Virus record (IMG/VR): IMGVR_UViG_3300045976_000117
Coordinates: 1 to 64,000 of that record
Strand: one strand, 5' to 3'
Origin: a virus
Length of the DNA: 64,000 nucleotides
Program-made: the position numbers and the translations under genes
In this document: positions 13,480 to 48,014 of the stretch, piece after piece
Numbering within the stretch: position 1 is the first letter of the stretch
How the letters are laid out: every line of letters starts with the position of its first letter
Notes under the pieces: generated by a model
Told to the model about the DNA's origin: nothing
Database searches by the model: none
What the model saw: the letters and a program-made list of their open reading frames with translations, nothing else

Positions 13480-14508
13480 ATGCGTGTTCTTGCTTTACTT
13501 CACTTGTATCCACCGCGGCATAATGCCGGAGGGGACATCACCGCACACATTTTGTTGCGGGAGTTGGTACGTCATGGGCATCAGGTGGTCGTGCAACTCA
13601 CGATGCCCCATCCTATGTACACGCTGGATCCGTACACTTACGAAGGCGTGAAAGTTTTTCCGTACATGGGTCAGGCAGACCCTCTGCGGTGGCTTGAGAT
13701 GTCTGACAAGCCTGATATCATTGTCACCCATCTTATGTCATCTCTCCGCGCGGCAATACTGGGTGACATTCATAAGATTCCGGTGATTCACCTTGTTCAC
13801 AATACACATGGAAAAACTAAGGCGGATCTTCGCTGGAAAACTGATCTGGCGGTTTACAATACAGAATGGATGAAAGTAGATGTTGAAAGTTGGTGGAGAG
13901 ATTATCAAGGCACCGAACCTCCACCAAACATCGTGGTTCATCCGCCGGTATTTAGAACGGATTATCAGGTCACTCCTCCCACCGCTGGCAAGGGCTGCGT
14001 CACTCTCATCAATCTGTTTGAAGACAAAGGCGCCAGTCTTTTTTACCAACTCGCGGAGAAATTTCCGCGACTGAGGTTTCTTGGTGTGACTGGTGCTTAC
14101 GGTAAACAAGATATTCGGCACGGCTTGCCCAATGTGGAGATCATACCTCATGTCGGACCAGCCGATATTAAAAATCTTGTCTACGCGAGAACACGAGTCC
14201 TCCTCATGCCCAGTGTGTACGAGTCGTACGGGCGTTGTGGGGTCGAGGCAGCGTGTTCCCGAATCCCTACCATCTACCACCCAACGCCAGGCCTTCTCGA
14301 GGCCCTAGGTGATGGTGGTATTGCCTGTGACCGTGATGACTTGAATGCCTGGGTAGCCACGTTGGCAGGTCTGACCACGTCGTCAGGGTGGCTGACCGCG
14401 TCTCAACGGGCCAAGGCGATAGCCGACCGGCTCACGCCGGAGGCCGACCTAGAGCGCTGGGTACAGGCCGCAGAGCAGACAGCTAGGGTGCCCGTTTCAA
14501 TAGGATAA
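13480..14508 (+). CDS. GT4-like glycosyltransferase
   Basis: 342 residues, GT-B fold. The N-terminal Rossmann domain has PPRHNAGGDITAHILLREL; the C-terminal domain has GPADIKNLVYARTRVLLMPS and the donor-binding E-x7-E motif in YESYGRCGVEAA. Membership of the GT4 family is by pattern. Placed inside the head operon, it may glycosylate the capsid or another virion protein. AGGAG precedes the ATG right after the junction structure. Confidence 0.8.
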   Translation: MRVLALLHLYPPRHNAGGDITAHILLRELVRHGHQVVVQLTMPHPMYTLDPYTYEGVKVFPYMGQADPLRWLEMSDKPDIIVTHLMSSLRAAILGDIHKIPVIHLVHNTHGKTKADLRWKTDLAVYNTEWMKVDVESWWRDYQGTEPPPNIVVHPPVFRTDYQVTPPTAGKGCVTLINLFEDKGASLFYQLAEKFPRLRFLGVTGAYGKQDIRHGLPNVEIIPHVGPADIKNLVYARTRVLLMPSVYESYGRCGVEAACSRIPTIYHPTPGLLEALGDGGIACDRDDLNAWVATLAGLTTSSGWLTASQRAKAIADRLTPEADLERWVQAAEQTARVPVSIG

Positions 14509-32758: not shown

Positions 32759-33286
32759 CTAGGCAACCTGCCGTACCAACTTCCGGCGTTCTGCCGGAGT
32801 CATGCCTCCGGCGATGGCGTAAGCATCATCAGTGGTAATGGCCCACTCGAGGCACTCAGCCGAGACGGGGCATTCCCGACACACGGCCTTAGCTGCCCTC
32901 ATGTTCGGTCGGTTACCAGGCTGCGACCACATGGTGTCAATCGGGAAGAAAATCGACTTGTCTTCCACATCCCGGCAAGCTGCCTTGTGGCGCCAGTCCT
33001 TCTCGTACATCGGAATTACCCTCCTCTCGAGCCAACAGATAGGACAACGTTGTGATGCGCCGTTACGCTTGAGCTCGCGCTCTCGGTAACGGTCTCCTTT
33101 CCATACCCGTGCTAGTTCCCAGGTAATACCCTCCGCGGCTGCCACTTGAAGTAGGCGAGCTCCATGAACTTTACCGTGCTGCCCTAGCCGATCAGCTAGA
33201 TTCAATGCCCATCCTGTGTAGTGCTTTGCGTGTTTGAATGGACGATGAAAATGCAGCAGGTAGATATATCCCTGGACGTTTCGCAC
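32759..33286 (-). CDS. GIY-YIG nuclease domain fused in frame to a WhiB-like protein
   Basis: 175 residues. Residues 1-84: GIY-YIG-like domain (GYIYLLHF, KHYTGWALNLADRL, ERELKRNG) ending CPIC as small Streptomyces GIY-YIG proteins do. Residues 93-175: WhiB-like iron-sulphur protein with Cys 104, 136, 139 and 145 in the C-x31-C-x2-C-x5-C pattern and an AIAGGMTPAERRKL end. ATG 33010 (Met93) has its own AGAGGAGGG 8 nt upstream, so WhiB alone is probably also made. The codon after CPIC is TGG where a TGA might once have stood. Confidence 0.75.
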   Translation of the reverse strand: MRNVQGYIYLLHFHRPFKHAKHYTGWALNLADRLGQHGKVHGARLLQVAAAEGITWELARVWKGDRYRERELKRNGASQRCPICWLERRVIPMYEKDWRHKAACRDVEDKSIFFPIDTMWSQPGNRPNMRAAKAVCRECPVSAECLEWAITTDDAYAIAGGMTPAERRKLVRQVA

Positions 33287-40583: not shown

Positions 40584-41477
40584 TTAGTGACCTCCTCCGA
40601 CAATGACGGGAGACCCGGCCGGTACTGGCACGGCCTGAACTTTGCCATCCGCGATAGCTCGTGCTACGGCCAGTTGCATCTGGTAAGCCGTATAACCAGT
40701 AATGCCGCCAGGGAAGTTCGCTGCGGTGTTCTTATCAGTCTCTGCGGTGGTAGCCCTCAGTTGCGCGGCTTGGTTGTTCGCAAGTTCGGCCTTCAGTGCG
40801 TCATTGGGATCCGGTTTTTGAAGGACGATGCTGTCAATGATGAAGTAATCTTCACCGGTTTGCTCTTTAACGATTTTCGGAATCTCAGCTTTAGAGGCAT
40901 TCTCCCAGTTCCCTTTAGTCACCGGATCCGTAAACAACTGCGACCAGCCGAATCCAAGAGCGGCATTACTGACTCCACGTTCGGCCGGAGCTCGGAGGAA
41001 TTTGTCAAGTACCTGATCCCAACCCTGACCAGGCTCAGCCCCTCCTTCTGTGGCGTAGGCCACATATTGCATGCCGATAGTCTCATGGAATTTCTGTAAA
41101 ATACCGCCTGGCCAGTTCTTGCCAAAAGCATCAGTATATGACTGGCAACTCGCGTTGAGATGGAAAGTGATATTCGCGGGAACACTCATGATCTGACCTT
41201 CTTTTGAAGTGATCGTAAGTGCTTGAAAATCACCACCTGGACCGAAGGTCAGGGTACGTTGAGCTGTCGTCGCAGGATAATAGAAGTAATCATCATTGAT
41301 TTTGTGGTACTCGAGCCTGCTAGGCTGCACACAACCCATGTACACCCGATTACTGAACGGACCATTCTTGTAATGCAGACCCACCTGATTAGCCGCGGTG
41401 TCTGCGATGGAGCAGCCAGCAACCGCCAATGTCACAGGAATGGCAATAATTGCTGACCAGCGTTGCCACCGTTTCAC
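40584..41477 (-). CDS. Lipoprotein with SPFH/band-7-like domain
   Basis: 297 residues from GTG 41477 (AAAGGA 7 nt upstream). Signal with lipobox AVAGC (about residue 21), then an SPFH-like core: strand DFQALTITSKEGQIMSVPAN, helices with FLRAPAERGVSNAALGF and a KAEIPKIVKEQTGEDYFIIDSIVLQKPDP segment, followed by a long helix. SPFH proteins organise membranes and assemble rings; here it would be on the outer face. Role in exclusion or envelope stress is a guess. Confidence 0.65.
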   Translation of the reverse strand: MKRWQRWSAIIAIPVTLAVAGCSIADTAANQVGLHYKNGPFSNRVYMGCVQPSRLEYHKINDDYFYYPATTAQRTLTFGPGGDFQALTITSKEGQIMSVPANITFHLNASCQSYTDAFGKNWPGGILQKFHETIGMQYVAYATEGGAEPGQGWDQVLDKFLRAPAERGVSNAALGFGWSQLFTDPVTKGNWENASKAEIPKIVKEQTGEDYFIIDSIVLQKPDPNDALKAELANNQAAQLRATTAETDKNTAANFPGGITGYTAYQMQLAVARAIADGKVQAVPVPAGSPVIVGGGH

Positions 41478-41517
41478 ACAAATTCCTTTCCGAGTCGGAA
41501 TAGTGCGACGCATCTTA

Positions 41518-42891: not shown

Positions 42892-43284
42892 CTAGGCCGC
42901 GGCAGCCTGCTTGGTCCTCAGGTGCTCGAGAATCTGCGGGTTTTGCGTTCGCCACGCGGTCACAGCGAGCTCCGGCAGGCGACCCCGCTGAGCCAGGCTG
43001 ACGCCATTGGCAGCCGCATACTCGCGTACCGCACTTCGCTCTTCCGGGGTCAGACCGGATCCAGTCGGCGCTGCCGTGGTGGACTTGGCCGGACGGCCAC
43101 GCTTGCCAGTACTGGCCTTGCGACCAGCCTCAACATATCGACCAAGGAAATTCCGAAGCTCGTCCTCCTCCGCAGGAGTCAAGTCGATCTCGTAAGTCAC
43201 CCCCGCAAGACCGAACTCCACATTGCGGGCATCGCCTTCGCCACTGAGATCACTGGCGATCTCTACAGTAACCTTCTGTGCCAT
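42892..43284 (-). CDS. Lsr2-like nucleoid protein
   Basis: 130 residues. N-terminal dimer domain: MAQKVTVEIASDLSGEGDAR then VEFGLAGVTYEIDLTPAEEDELR, the Lsr2 pattern. Linker with KRGRPAKST, and a C-terminal DNA-binding helix pair with the Arg-Gly-Arg motif at 100-102 (GVSLAQRGRLPELAV). It binds AT-rich DNA minor groove in the family; a phage copy could silence early genes or counteract host Lsr2. Confidence 0.85.
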   Translation of the reverse strand: MAQKVTVEIASDLSGEGDARNVEFGLAGVTYEIDLTPAEEDELRNFLGRYVEAGRKASTGKRGRPAKSTTAAPTGSGLTPEERSAVREYAAANGVSLAQRGRLPELAVTAWRTQNPQILEHLRTKQAAAA

Positions 43285-44038: not shown

Positions 44039-44083
44039 GGACCGGGTTTCAGTTACGTAATTGAAACTGTAGTATGCCGGTCC
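44039..44083. promoter_or_regulatory. Operator-like nested dyad in the divergent gap
   Basis: GTTTCA (44046-44051) and TGAAAC (44062-44067) surround TTACGTAA (44053-44060), giving a 22-bp near-perfect dyad; GGACCGG (44039-44045) and CCGGTCC (44077-44083) add an outer 7-bp repeat. It lies in the 199-bp gap between divergent 44001 (-) and 44201 (+). Nothing else was recognised in that gap. Confidence 0.6.
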
Positions 44084-44200: not shown

Positions 44201-45070
44201 GTGATCGATCTTGCCGCGGTTCGGAAGACCCAGAGCCAGATTAATGCGGCTATCTGGGGCTGTGCCGGTATCGCCATGTCTGCTTCAGCTATCGCAGGAA
44301 TTACCGGATTTTGGAACCTGCAACACGATGGCTGGGGTCTTGCCTCAGGTCTCACTACTTCGGTAGCCGTGGACACGGCTCTTTGGGTAGCTCTGACCTC
44401 TGATCAACTCATGGAGCGCGCGGGCCTGGCCGCAGACGGGCCTTGGGCTCGCGCCGTACGCTGGGGCACCGCGGTGATGTCGATCTTCCTCAACGTGCTG
44501 GCTGCGGTGCTATCTCCTATCGAAGCCGGTTTCAAATTTCTTCTGATCGTGATTCATGCCTTTGCGCCATTGATCATGGTTGGTTTGGCAGAGCTCCGAA
44601 CGGAGAACGGTCGCAAGCTGGCTGCCAGGGAGCGCGAGGCTCTCGAGCAAGAAGAGGCCCGACGTAGGGCCCTTGATACTCCGATCGTTGCTCCATCCGA
44701 GCGAATCTCACCCCCGGTGCCGATCGTCTCTGTTCCGGACCCCCGGCTGGCCAGTGAGGTTGCCGAACTTCGCGCGGAGCTTGCTCGAGTCAAGACGTTG
44801 ACCCCGGCTCCTCCCACGCCCAAGCCTCCGCAGACGGTAGTGACTCCCTTGCGGCCTGCAACTGAATCCTCAAAAAATCACCGTGGGGCCTCAGTAACCG
44901 ATCGGATCGTTACTTATCTCAACACTCATCACTGTGGGGACCCTTATGGAATCACCGCGGAGATTTTAGCGTCTAAAACTAAACAAAATGTACACACCTG
45001 TAAAAAAGTTCTCACCGATTGGCGTCGGGGGCAAACTGACAAATCACAACGTAGGACGGCGACACCATGA
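44201..45070 (+). CDS. DUF2637-like membrane protein with C-terminal winged helix
   Basis: 289 residues from GTG 44201. Four membrane segments in the first ~150 with AVDTALWVALTSDQLMERAG between them, then a coiled coil (GRKLAAREREALEQEEARRR), Pro linker, and a helix-turn-helix-like end (SVTDRIVTYLNTHHCGD, ITAEILASKTKQNVHTCKKV). This layout is known from spread/transfer proteins of Streptomyces plasmids and integrative elements. It overlaps the translocase gene by 4 bases (ATGA). Confidence 0.65.
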   Translation: MIDLAAVRKTQSQINAAIWGCAGIAMSASAIAGITGFWNLQHDGWGLASGLTTSVAVDTALWVALTSDQLMERAGLAADGPWARAVRWGTAVMSIFLNVLAAVLSPIEAGFKFLLIVIHAFAPLIMVGLAELRTENGRKLAAREREALEQEEARRRALDTPIVAPSERISPPVPIVSVPDPRLASEVAELRAELARVKTLTPAPPTPKPPQTVVTPLRPATESSKNHRGASVTDRIVTYLNTHHCGDPYGITAEILASKTKQNVHTCKKVLTDWRRGQTDKSQRRTATP

Positions 45071-47220
45071 CTATCACTGATATTTCTCAGCCACCGGAGC
45101 CTGAGAACGAGGAACAACGGCAAAGTGCCATGCGACGGGCCCTCAATCGATGGTTCCGAAGGCCAGAGCCTGAAGACTATGAAGAGGTGACCGGCACTGA
45201 ACTGTCACCATACGTGCCAACACCGCGAGAGCCCGAGCTCGAGCCACTGGCTTGGCTGGAAAAGCACAAGCTCACATTGCCTGACCGGCGACGGGTCAAG
45301 GCTCGAAGCAAGGAAGTAGCCAGGCACCTGCCCGGTATGGCCGTCAAGTTTGCTTTTACCACCCTCCCACGGAGAGCTTGGGACGAAGGCGTAACTCCCG
45401 TCTGGCGTGGTTGCGGCAAATGTGCAATGGCTTACTACAACTGGTTGACCTCCGCCTATCTCGCGGAGGCTCACAAAGACGCCGAAGGCACCCGTAAATC
45501 AGCGATTAACCAGAATAGGCACAAGAGTCATGGCTACAAGCTCTGGGCTTCGGTCTTCGGCGCTTGTACTGCTGCCGGAGGCATGGCCTACCTGTACTTC
45601 TATCATTTTATTCCGTTTCTGGTCGTACTGGGTGTAGTGCTATTTCTTCTCGATGTGCTTGGCCGTGTGGGAGAAGAGAAGAAACAAGAGATTGCTCCGG
45701 TTCACACTCAGCCACTTAGTGAAGGTATGGAGTACGGACAGCTCACCGCGACGATTCAAGCTGGCCTCAATGAGACTATTGGACTGGACAGCGAGGGTAA
45801 GCCACTTGCGCGTGTTTCAGGTCTTGTTACTTATGATTTTGAGCGTGGAGAGTTCCGACAGCCGATCACTACATATCACGACTTCGAAGAAAAACACATT
45901 CGCTATCTAGAACGTCGGGTGGCGGCACGACCCGGCAGCATATTCGTCTTGCAGGAACCGAAAATCTCTACTCAGCGAACCATGGTCATCAAATATCGTG
46001 ACCCGTTCCGAGATGTGCCGTCTGCTCCGTTTATCAAGCCTGGTACGAAATCTATTACCGAGGGTTGTGTTATCGGAGTATCGCAGACTGACCGACAGTT
46101 CCTTGTGCATGTAGCTGGTCTGCATGTTGGCGTGGTGGCCCAGTCGGCAGGTGGCAAGTCCGAAGGGATCATTGCCTCTTTGATCGAGGCTATCCTTGCG
46201 ACACACAATGCTGTGCCGGTTGGCATTGACCTTACCGAAGGACCACTATTTCCAATTTATGAAGGTCTTGTTCAAAAAGTTGCATACACTCCCAAAGATG
46301 CGGAGGAACTTCTCGGTTGGCTGATAGATGAAAAAAGTCGTAGAGCTAAAATTTTGCAGAATATTGCTCGCAGTGATGATCCGAACGTCAAGGGCCGTGA
46401 GTGGAACGCAGATCTCGCGGCGCTGTATAACGCTCCGAGCATCCATGTCATTATCGATGAATTAGCAATGACAACAAAATTCGATGGTAAGGGCGGCAGT
46501 ATTAATCTGCGGGCACCGATCGAAGAGCTCGCCCGTACCGGGTCCAAGCACTGGATCACTCTTATCACTGGCCAGCAGAAGACCGGTAACAATGACGCAG
46601 GTTCTACTGGTATCACCGACAACATGCACGTCTGGCTAGTAGGTCCTTGCTCCCCAGATGACGCTAATGCAATCTTCACCGCGGAGGGGCGTAAGCAGGG
46701 ATATGCACCTAACTTGCTGAAGTCGGCAGAACGGGGCAAGTCTCCTAATGATGCTGGTCGATGCTATGTCAAGGCTCCCGGCTATGGCCCGGACGTGTAT
46801 TGCTCCTATCGGCCGATGCCGGAAGACGAACTCAAGCGTCGCCGCAAGATGCGCCTTGAAATCGGAATACCGATGTTAAAACACTGTGGTGAAGATGATA
46901 ATGATGAAATTATGGAGGCTGAGGTGGTTCCAAGCAGGCCAGTGCTCGAGGCTCTCGCGGCAGCCTTCGAAGATATTAATCCGCCGGACGGCAGATTGCC
47001 GAGTGCTTTGGCTGCTCAATGGATCAGTGAAAGGACCGATATGGAATTTACTCAAGAATCTCTGGCCGCTGCTCTAAAGAAGGAGCTCGGTGATGACCGG
47101 GCACCGCGGACGTACAGCAACCGGTGCAAGATCGTGAAGATCCTTAATCCGGAGGCTGAGAACACCAACCGCAAGTACTACGCACATGCGGACATTTCGA
47201 GCCTCATGGCGGGGGTGTGA
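45067..47220 (+). CDS. FtsK/SpoIIIE/TraB-like DNA translocase
   Basis: 717 residues. Two membrane helices (about 158-198), a beta linker, then the motor: Walker A VAQSAGGKSEG (about 357-367) and Walker B SIHVIIDELAM (458-468), followed by RTGSKHWITLITGQQ (sensor-like) and a C-terminal helix-turn-helix part with WISERTDMEFTQESLAAAL (about 652-670, gamma-like). Membrane-anchored hexamers of this family pump double-stranded DNA. Domain order fits conjugative TraB better than bacterial FtsK by length. Confidence 0.8.
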   Translation: MTITDISQPPEPENEEQRQSAMRRALNRWFRRPEPEDYEEVTGTELSPYVPTPREPELEPLAWLEKHKLTLPDRRRVKARSKEVARHLPGMAVKFAFTTLPRRAWDEGVTPVWRGCGKCAMAYYNWLTSAYLAEAHKDAEGTRKSAINQNRHKSHGYKLWASVFGACTAAGGMAYLYFYHFIPFLVVLGVVLFLLDVLGRVGEEKKQEIAPVHTQPLSEGMEYGQLTATIQAGLNETIGLDSEGKPLARVSGLVTYDFERGEFRQPITTYHDFEEKHIRYLERRVAARPGSIFVLQEPKISTQRTMVIKYRDPFRDVPSAPFIKPGTKSITEGCVIGVSQTDRQFLVHVAGLHVGVVAQSAGGKSEGIIASLIEAILATHNAVPVGIDLTEGPLFPIYEGLVQKVAYTPKDAEELLGWLIDEKSRRAKILQNIARSDDPNVKGREWNADLAALYNAPSIHVIIDELAMTTKFDGKGGSINLRAPIEELARTGSKHWITLITGQQKTGNNDAGSTGITDNMHVWLVGPCSPDDANAIFTAEGRKQGYAPNLLKSAERGKSPNDAGRCYVKAPGYGPDVYCSYRPMPEDELKRRRKMRLEIGIPMLKHCGEDDNDEIMEAEVVPSRPVLEALAAAFEDINPPDGRLPSALAAQWISERTDMEFTQESLAAALKKELGDDRAPRTYSNRCKIVKILNPEAENTNRKYYAHADISSLMAGV

Positions 47221-47410
47221 GGGGGCTACGAGGGGGTCAACTGTTGCGGGTCTGTTGCGCAACATCAGGTGCCCTGTTGACCCTCTCTGTCAACCCCCTG
47301 GCTACATGGTCATACCTCCCGATTGTCCGGGTATCCGAGCGCGTACTCCAGTGCGCATCCGCAGGTACTGACCGGGTACTCACGCGAGTACTCAGGGGAG
47401 GTGAGTACCC

Positions 47411-47620
47411 GTGGGCATTGCACTTCTGATACTCGTGGGAGTACTCGCGGTTTGGGCGCGTCATTGCTGGCGTTGGCCCTATGTGACCTGCAAACATTGC
47501 GAGGGCAAGAAGCGTGAGTACTCGTCGGACGGCGCGTACTTCCGAGACTCTGAGTGCGCGTTCTGCCTCACCAACGGGTATCGGTACCGGTGGGAGCTTC
47601 GATGGCTGACCCTGCTGTGA
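47411..47620 (+). CDS. Small membrane protein with zinc knuckle
   Basis: 69 residues: membrane helix 2-18, CKHCEGKKREYSSDG and CAFCLTNGYR making a Cys4 site, Trp-rich end. AGGGGAGG lies 8 nt before GTG 47411. Small proteins of this type often follow transfer genes in actinobacterial elements. Three of the GAGTAC repeats lie inside it. Confidence 0.65.
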   Translation: MGIALLILVGVLAVWARHCWRWPYVTCKHCEGKKREYSSDGAYFRDSECAFCLTNGYRYRWELRWLTLL

Positions 47621-47640
47621 GTACCCGCAACATCGCTGAC

Positions 47641-47698
47641 CTGTCCAGCTTGACAGGGGTCATCTGTCCGGGTACTTTGTGCCTAGGAACTTAGGCAG
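47641..47698 (+). promoter_or_regulatory. Rightward promoter F with two palindromic operators
   Basis: TTGACA (47650-47655), 17 bp, TACTTT (47673-47678). The -35 lies within palindrome CTGTCCAGCTTGACAG (47641-47656); the dyad GTGCCTAGGAACTTAGGCAG (47679-47698) covers the expected start. Same architecture as promoter C, opposite direction. Drives 47714 onward. Confidence 0.78.
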
Positions 47699-47713
47699 TT
47701 GAGAGGTAGAAAG

Positions 47714-48014
47714 ATGAGTACTCGGAAAAGTGTCAAATCGACCCATGCGGGGACTTGTTCGCAGCGTCTGCAAGATCGTACGCAATGGGTCCGAAACACC
47801 GGACAGAAGGCCGGACAGTTTGGGGCTGTAGGGCTGTTTACTTTGACTCTGGCGGGCTGTGGTGGCCATGCATTCCTCGACAACAGCCCGACCTGCGGCT
47901 GGTGGATGGTACGGCGTCACCCATGTCAACGTGGACGGCAAAATGGTTCCGTGCGTGACTTGGAAAAATGGCCACGCGGGCGGAATCAGTTGTGATTTTG
48001 CGGGGTCGAAGTGA
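47714..48014 (+). pseudogene. Lipoprotein-type gene split by a frameshift
   Basis: ATG 47714 opens a frame with basic N terminus and GLFTLTLAGCGG (lipobox), but after about 47885 its product looks random and ends at 47995. In another frame, ARPAAGGWYGVTHVNVDGKM and VPCVTWKNGHAGGISCDFAG reads coherently to TGA 48012-48014, which overlaps the next GTG. Alternatively a separate 48-residue gene starts at ATG 47868. Confidence 0.5.

What the first reader, a model, noticed from the sequence alone, without database searches (positions are those of the whole stretch)
44201..47726. Plasmid-type DNA transfer module with an adjacent clt-like repeat locus in a phage
Seen: a DUF2637-like membrane protein is coupled to a 717-residue membrane-anchored FtsK/TraB-like ATPase, and immediately after its stop come dyads (GGGTCAAC/GTTGACCC, TGTTGCGCAACA) and a cluster of 8-mers of the form G(A/G)GTAC(T/C)C, four of them exact GAGTACTC within 340 bp. 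Known: Streptomyces plasmid TraB translocases bind 8-bp repeats in a locus lying beside traB and move double-stranded DNA between hyphae. Inference: the phage may spread as a plasmid through mycelium, or use the motor to position or segregate its genome.
Basis: partly seen in the sequence, partly recalled or inferred. Interest (0 to 1): 0.82.

Follow-up and report, generated by a model that had tools for sequence, protein, structure and literature searches.

The report
Phage-borne plasmid-type DNA transfer module
An actinobacterial virus from an environmental sequence record carries a membrane DNA pump of the kind Streptomyces plasmids use to pass DNA between cells, followed, as in those plasmids, by a patch of short repeated DNA words that probably marks the DNA to be moved; this suggests, but does not prove, that the virus can move its genome through a mycelium without making particles.

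Summary
44201-45070 encodes a DUF2637-like membrane protein and 45067-47220 a 717-aa membrane-anchored FtsK/TraB-class motor, coupled by an ATGA overlap. Four of the record's five GAGTACTC sites lie at 47386-47723, far above chance. Added here: (1) the cassette is conserved in two related phage contigs (G006 FtsK 52% identical). They lack GAGTACTC but carry an array of another word (AGGGGTCA) at the same place. (2) Word arrays directly 3' of the translocase gene are general in Streptomyces plasmids. The same blind scan recovers words matching the published clt repeats of pJV1 and pWTY27, shows arrays after plasmid relatives of the phage gene, and mostly not after control genes; new loci agreed. 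(3) On the motor tree this phage pair lies among plasmid translocases, apart from the FtsK of BE-type Streptomyces phages, which have no array. So a clt-like locus is the best reading, moderately supported. Not shown: DNA binding, transfer, host. Cautions: the window word is palindromic, the sites overlap a conserved small gene and flank a promoter (operator rival), the C-terminal domain is not detectably TraB's DNA-binding domain, and no integrase or ParA was found. New variant of a known kind; interest 0.7.

The parts
44201..45070 (+). DUF2637-like protein, 289 aa: helical membrane N-terminal half and a C-terminal helical DNA-binding-like tail; stop overlaps the FtsK start (ATGA)
   Evidence: phrog_25954 E 1.4e-10; 49% identical in G006; AF2 mean pLDDT 67, long helices 4-159 and helices 232-285; tail of the G006 copy weakly matches KfrA_N, E 0.017
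45067..47220 (+). FtsK/TraB-class membrane-anchored DNA translocase, 717 aa: hydrophobic hairpin ~158-204, degenerate Walker A AQSAGGKS (358-365), Walker B HVIIDE (460-465), C-terminal helical domain ~622-717
   Evidence: phrog_12531 E 3.7e-11; hhalign to TraB 97.1%, E 7e-11; nine-sequence profile hits FtsK 2ius at 1.8e-11 and TcpA; 52% identical in G006
47221..47310 (.). dyads after the FtsK stop (GAGGGGGTCAAC/GTTGACCCTCTC, TGTTGCGCAACA)
   Evidence: RNA fold z -3.7; dyad-type sequence also after the stop in G006 and L126 (read by eye)
47323..47337 (+). TTGTCCGGGTATCCG, identical in G006 and partly kept in L126, between dyads and array
47341..47723 (.). clt-like repeat array: GAGTACTC at 47386, 47439, 47516, 47716; GRGTACYC also at 47374, 47403, 47619; weaker GTAC sites at 47341, 47534, 47670
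   Evidence: other words at the same place in relatives
47411..47620 (+). conserved small protein, 69 aa: membrane helix plus CxxC...CxxC zinc-ribbon-like part; overlaps the array
   Evidence: 60% identical in G006, 64% best-segment identity in L126
47650..47678 (+). promoter-like site conserved in G006 (TTGACA, 17 nt, TACTTT), flanked by array words

Best explanation
This is a DNA-transfer module of Streptomyces-plasmid type carried by a virulent-looking actinobacterial siphophage. Best supported: a membrane-anchored FtsK/TraB-class motor (45067-47220), translationally coupled to a DUF2637-like membrane partner, with an element-specific array of short DNA words directly 3' of its gene, where plasmids keep clt. 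Inferred: the motor loads on this array through its C-terminal domain and pumps double-stranded phage DNA through a membrane channel, across septa or into neighbouring hyphae, so that the genome spreads in a mycelium without virions. Confidence by step: plasmid-type motor 0.93; array is a loading site for this motor 0.55; phage DNA moved between compartments 0.4.
For: Motor. Tree: this phage pair groups with the plasmid pRVR1 translocase (91/87), BE-type phages with another plasmid (99/99). Array. Same cassette in G006 and L126 with AGGGGTC five and six times, all in one orientation, at the same place; GGGGTCA has 8 of its 15 copies in the 40-kb L126 record there. Arrays follow translocase genes in plasmids: 8 of 11 gaps at p<=0.02 against 6 of 40 control gaps (Fisher 0.0005); six further loci against 19 controls, Mann-Whitney 0.0015. 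The scan recovers CCGCACAC and CCTGACAC, which match the published clt repeats of pJV1 (CCGCACA[C/G][C/G]) and pWTY27 (TGACACC, 16 bp inside traA plus 159 bp beside it) (PMC3583192). Word and C-terminal domain diverge together: G006 and L126 share the word and 84.5% of that domain, the window has another word and 45-49%. DUF2637 genes are annotated near traB or plasmid ftsK.
Against: GAGTACTC is palindromic, whereas the clt words of pJV1- and pWTY27-type plasmids and the words of the two relatives are asymmetric direct repeats, so it gives no direction. Words also flank a conserved promoter-like site and overlap gene starts, as operators do. The C-terminal domain is not alignable to TraB's, and the window protein has no hit to the NCBIfam TraB model. 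The word/domain covariation is one contrast. No integrase or ParA found, so an episomal state is unsupported. Arrays are absent after some plasmid translocases (L011, L014, L131, L135) and in BE-type phages. The structure model failed (pLDDT 43.5).
Confidence: 0.5

Rival explanations
1. The words are operators: a phage DNA-binding protein (possibly the DUF2637-like protein's tail or an unidentified repressor) binds the palindromes and controls the genes from 47411 rightward.
For: The window word is a perfect palindrome in mixed orientation. Words sit just upstream of the -35 of a conserved promoter-like site in all three phages and overlap the -10 region and next start codon in the window.
Against: The array spans about 380 bp and runs through a coding region, more than a simple operator needs. 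The same location holds arrays after translocase genes in unrelated plasmids. The only other GAGTACTC of the record (28012) lies inside a tail gene, not at a promoter.
Confidence: 0.27
2. Stability or positioning system like SpdA/sps of pIJ101: a small DNA-binding protein binds palindromes in and around its own gene, and the module keeps phage DNA distributed along hyphae rather than transferring it.
For: In pIJ101 a conserved 12-bp palindrome lies within the spdA2 gene, is bound by SpdA2 and affects segregational stability, not transfer (PMC4170104). Here palindromes lie in and around a small gene with CxxC pairs.
Against: The small protein looks membrane-bound and was not matched to SpdA. 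The word is not conserved in the two relatives, whereas sps is strongly conserved between plasmids.
Confidence: 0.13
3. Inherited plasmid cargo acting on other DNA: the motor was captured from a plasmid and now excludes or mobilises resident plasmids, and the array is a remnant.
For: The tree suggests capture from plasmid-type translocases at least twice in Streptomyces phages; BE-type phages keep a motor without an adjacent array.
Against: Array and motor are both maintained in three diverged phages, and the word pattern persists where the flanking DNA has changed.
Confidence: 0.1

Closest known systems
TraB/clt conjugation modules of Streptomyces plasmids (pJV1, pWTY27, pSVH1)
   Same: Membrane-anchored FtsK-class motor; array of short words plus inverted repeats directly after its gene; DUF2637 genes nearby in several
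   Different: Carried by a tailed phage; motor only distantly related (26% over 129 residues in a pairwise BLAST match to pJV1 TraB); C-terminal DNA-binding domain not recognisable as TraB's; window word palindromic
FtsK translocases of large Streptomyces/Kitasatospora plasmids (pRVR1, NBC_00285, HF10, K. cathayae) with DUF2637-type genes upstream
   Same: Closest clade on the tree; DUF2637 then FtsK gene order; word array after the stop codon
   Different: N-terminal region differs; several encode an RRQRL zinc protein between the two genes; many arrays are bracketed by GCAGGTCA...TGACCTGC, of which the phages have one copy, in a coding region
FtsK-like DNA translocase of BE-type Streptomyces phages (Tomas, Karimac, StarPlatinum)
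   Same: Streptomyces phages encoding a plasmid-clade FtsK motor
   Different: Apparently separate acquisition; no DUF2637 gene annotated beside it in Tomas and no adjacent array
SpdA2/sps of pIJ101
   Same: Short palindromes repeated in and around a small gene
   Different: 12-bp conserved palindrome; small protein here is membrane-bound and not shown to bind DNA

Membership tests
FtsK/SpoIIIE/TraB motor superfamily | RecA-like motor with Walker A and B in a membrane-anchored protein | tested here: met
   phrog_12531, Pfam FtsK_SpoIIIE only sub-threshold, hhalign to TraB, FtsK and TcpA by profile; Walker A degenerate in the window copy, canonical in G006
TraB (plasmid conjugation) | Reaches the NCBIfam plasmid_TraB model | tested here: not met
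   No hit for the window protein
TraB (plasmid conjugation) | C-terminal winged-helix domain that reads 8-bp repeats | tested here: inconclusive
   Helical C-terminal domain present, but no detectable similarity to TraB's; weak similarity (E 0.002) to that of plasmid FtsK relatives
TraB (plasmid conjugation) | clt: short repeats and inverted repeats adjacent to the translocase gene | tested here: met
   By position and statistics; binding not tested
TraB (plasmid conjugation) | Translocates dsDNA to a recipient | not testable with these tools
   Needs an experiment
Chromosomal FtsK/SpoIIIE | C-terminal FtsK gamma domain | tested here: not met
   No Pfam FtsK_gamma hit in the window protein
Phage-plasmid (episomal prophage) | Integrase absent, partition or replication-maintenance genes present | tested here: inconclusive
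   No tyrosine or serine recombinase and no ParA (AAA_31) in G000 or G006; Samy's serine integrase was found as positive control
SpdA/sps | SpdA-type DNA-binding protein with a conserved 12-bp palindrome | not tested
   SpdA sequences were not compared; the word here is 8 bp, sps is 12 bp (PMC4170104)

The most novel reading that the evidence does not exclude
A tailed phage of mycelial actinobacteria uses a plasmid-derived motor and its own clt to send naked double-stranded genomes across septa and between hyphae: a virion-independent route of infection.
Probability: 0.35. Interest if true: 0.92.

Novelty: new variant of a known kind. Interest (0 to 1): 0.7.

Why it matters
If true, it joins phage infection to conjugation-like dsDNA transfer in Streptomyces-type mycelia and gives a testable answer to how a phage could cross a multicellular, septate host. 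Independently of the phage, the comparison predicts clt loci (a word array directly after the translocase gene, often bracketed by GCAGGTCA...TGACCTGC) for a class of large Streptomyces and Kitasatospora plasmids whose translocases many records list only as 'hypothetical protein'.

Tried and rejected
AlphaFold2 of the translocase was too poor to use (pLDDT 43.5); its best Foldseek hits were TcpA, which agrees with the sequence but carries little weight. Fold search of the DUF2637-like protein: no match with E <= 0.001. Replication origin rejected as the favoured reading: in G006 an iteron-like cluster (GTTGGAAC/GTTCCAAC) lies after the primase-like gene at about 79.4-79.85 kb. Low-complexity coding artefact rejected: the relatives keep an array at this place with another word. 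Two genome-contig scans with the phage motor found no relative. Direct profile comparison of the DUF2637-like pair with plasmid DUF2637 proteins failed, so that link rests on PHROG and Samy gp86. A sequence-handling slip (wrong key for G000) was corrected; a one-base frame error for the L126 DUF2637-like protein makes its identity figures there invalid (the correct start is used).

Full report
The window is part of a 74,298-base IMG/VR record. The virus is a siphophage whose terminase is 63% identical to that of the temperate Streptomyces phage Samy and about 51% to Gordonia phages of about 92 kb. The closest long relative, G006 (IMGVR_UViG_3300035694_000001, 95,770 bases), is collinear with the record over most of its length, so G000 is probably incomplete by some 20 kb. 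The host is not known. A Streptomyces-type actinobacterium is likely from Samy and from the plasmid relatives, but this is inference.

Observation. GAGTACTC occurs five times in the record and four of these lie within 338 bp; GRGTACYC has 7 of its 13 sites there; the GTAC core is about fivefold over-represented in 47221-47760. A scan for any repeated 8-mer ranks the region among the strongest clusters of the record, and the ones that equal or exceed it lie in coding repeats.

The motor. Pfam only touches FtsK_SpoIIIE below threshold; phrog_12531 matches at 3.7e-11. Close relatives are absent from the named phages and plasmids searched: the best are Streptomyces plasmid translocases and BE-type Streptomyces phages at 22-28% identity over about half the protein. 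Profiles connect it to TraB (97.1%, E 7e-11), FtsK and TcpA. On a maximum-likelihood tree of the motor domain the window phage and G006 group with the pRVR1 plasmid protein (91/87), while BE-type phages group with another plasmid (99/99). This suggests two captures from plasmids, subject to rooting.

The cassette in relatives. G006 and a third contig, L126 (IMGVR_UViG_3300036829_000176), carry the DUF2637-like gene, the FtsK gene with ATGA coupling, dyads, an array and the small zinc-ribbon gene in the same order; in G006 an Lsr2 gene also lies to the left and a YdjM-like gene to the right, as in the window. Neither relative has the GAGTACTC array. Instead AGGGGTC occurs five and six times, all in one orientation, after the FtsK stop; in the 40-kb L126 record 8 of 15 GGGGTCA copies are there. 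G006 and L126 share 84.5% of the C-terminal domain and the word; the window has 45-49% of that domain and a different word. This fits co-evolution of a DNA-reading domain with its site, but it is a single contrast.

Is an array after a translocase gene more than coincidence? The same blind statistic on plasmid loci gives significant arrays in 8 of 11 gaps that follow translocase genes against 6 of 40 control gaps in the same loci. In a second set of six loci fetched afterwards, translocase gaps again had lower p values than 19 control gaps (Mann-Whitney 0.0015; 2 of 6 at p<=0.02, two more at 0.03-0.04). In traB plasmids the recovered words (CCGCACAC, CCTGACAC) match published clt repeats: pJV1 CCGCACA[C/G][C/G], and pWTY27 TGACACC in a clt of 16 bp inside traA plus the adjacent 159 bp (PMC3583192). 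That paper also states that clt sequences vary between plasmids but contain multiple direct and/or inverted repeats, which describes what is seen here. BE-type phages show no array. Upstream flanks were not enriched; in the finer test only L013 (against one of two null models) and L109 were.

Reading. A clt-like loading locus for the phage's own motor is the best single explanation, and movement of phage DNA across septa or between hyphae is the natural function, by analogy with plasmids. Shown: presence, conservation, position and statistics. Inferred: binding, loading, translocation, and what DNA is moved. The strongest rival is an operator array, because the window word is palindromic and words flank a conserved promoter-like site in the relatives too. 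The two are not exclusive. No integrase or ParA was found in G000 or G006 while Samy's integrase was detected, so the phages look virulent; a plasmid-like carrier state is possible but unsupported.

Membership. The protein belongs to the FtsK/TraB motor superfamily and to a clade of plasmid FtsK translocases; it is not filed as TraB, because it misses the TraB model and its C-terminal domain is not recognisably TraB's. It works like a TraB/clt module in its anatomy.

Noticed in passing
window 32759-33286 (-): 175-aa protein joining an N-terminal GIY-YIG-like part (Pfam E 0.016, below cut-off) to a full WhiB domain (E 3.5e-18); the combination looks unusual.
   Followed up: partly
record 66958-69690 (-) = L005:2958-5690: Helicase (ResIII/Helicase_C) interrupted at its Walker A (GKG...) by an insert with LAGLIDADG/Hom_end matches, probably an intein; the G006 homologue is uninterrupted.
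   Followed up: partly
L114:19370-19900 (G006 79370-79900): Iteron-like GTTGGAAC/GTTCCAAC repeats around an AT-rich stretch after a primase-like gene: candidate replication origin.
   Followed up: partly
L009, L013, L129, L130, L132, L133 after the translocase stop; single copies in L010 and L012: Plasmid arrays (GGAAC words in five of the six) bracketed by an inverted pair GCAGGTCA...TGACCTGC; a single TGACCTGC lies in the small gene of all three phages (window 47484), possibly only codon chance.
   Followed up: partly
window 44046-44067: Near-perfect palindrome GTTTCAGTTACGTAATTGAAAC between the divergent leftward (Lsr2 side) and rightward (DUF2637-FtsK) genes; possible operator. Not seen by eye in the G006 intergenic stretch.
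   Followed up: no
window 42892-43284 (-): Phage-encoded Lsr2 nucleoid protein (Pfam E 1.7e-18) next to the module; an Lsr2-like gene lies at the same place in G006.
   Followed up: partly
window 13480-14508 (+): Glycosyltransferase-like ORF inside the head gene block (named from its sequence by eye, no family search).
   Followed up: no
window 40584-41513 (-): SPFH/Band-7-like lipoprotein (phrog_200, E 2.6e-15) encoded by the phage.
   Followed up: no
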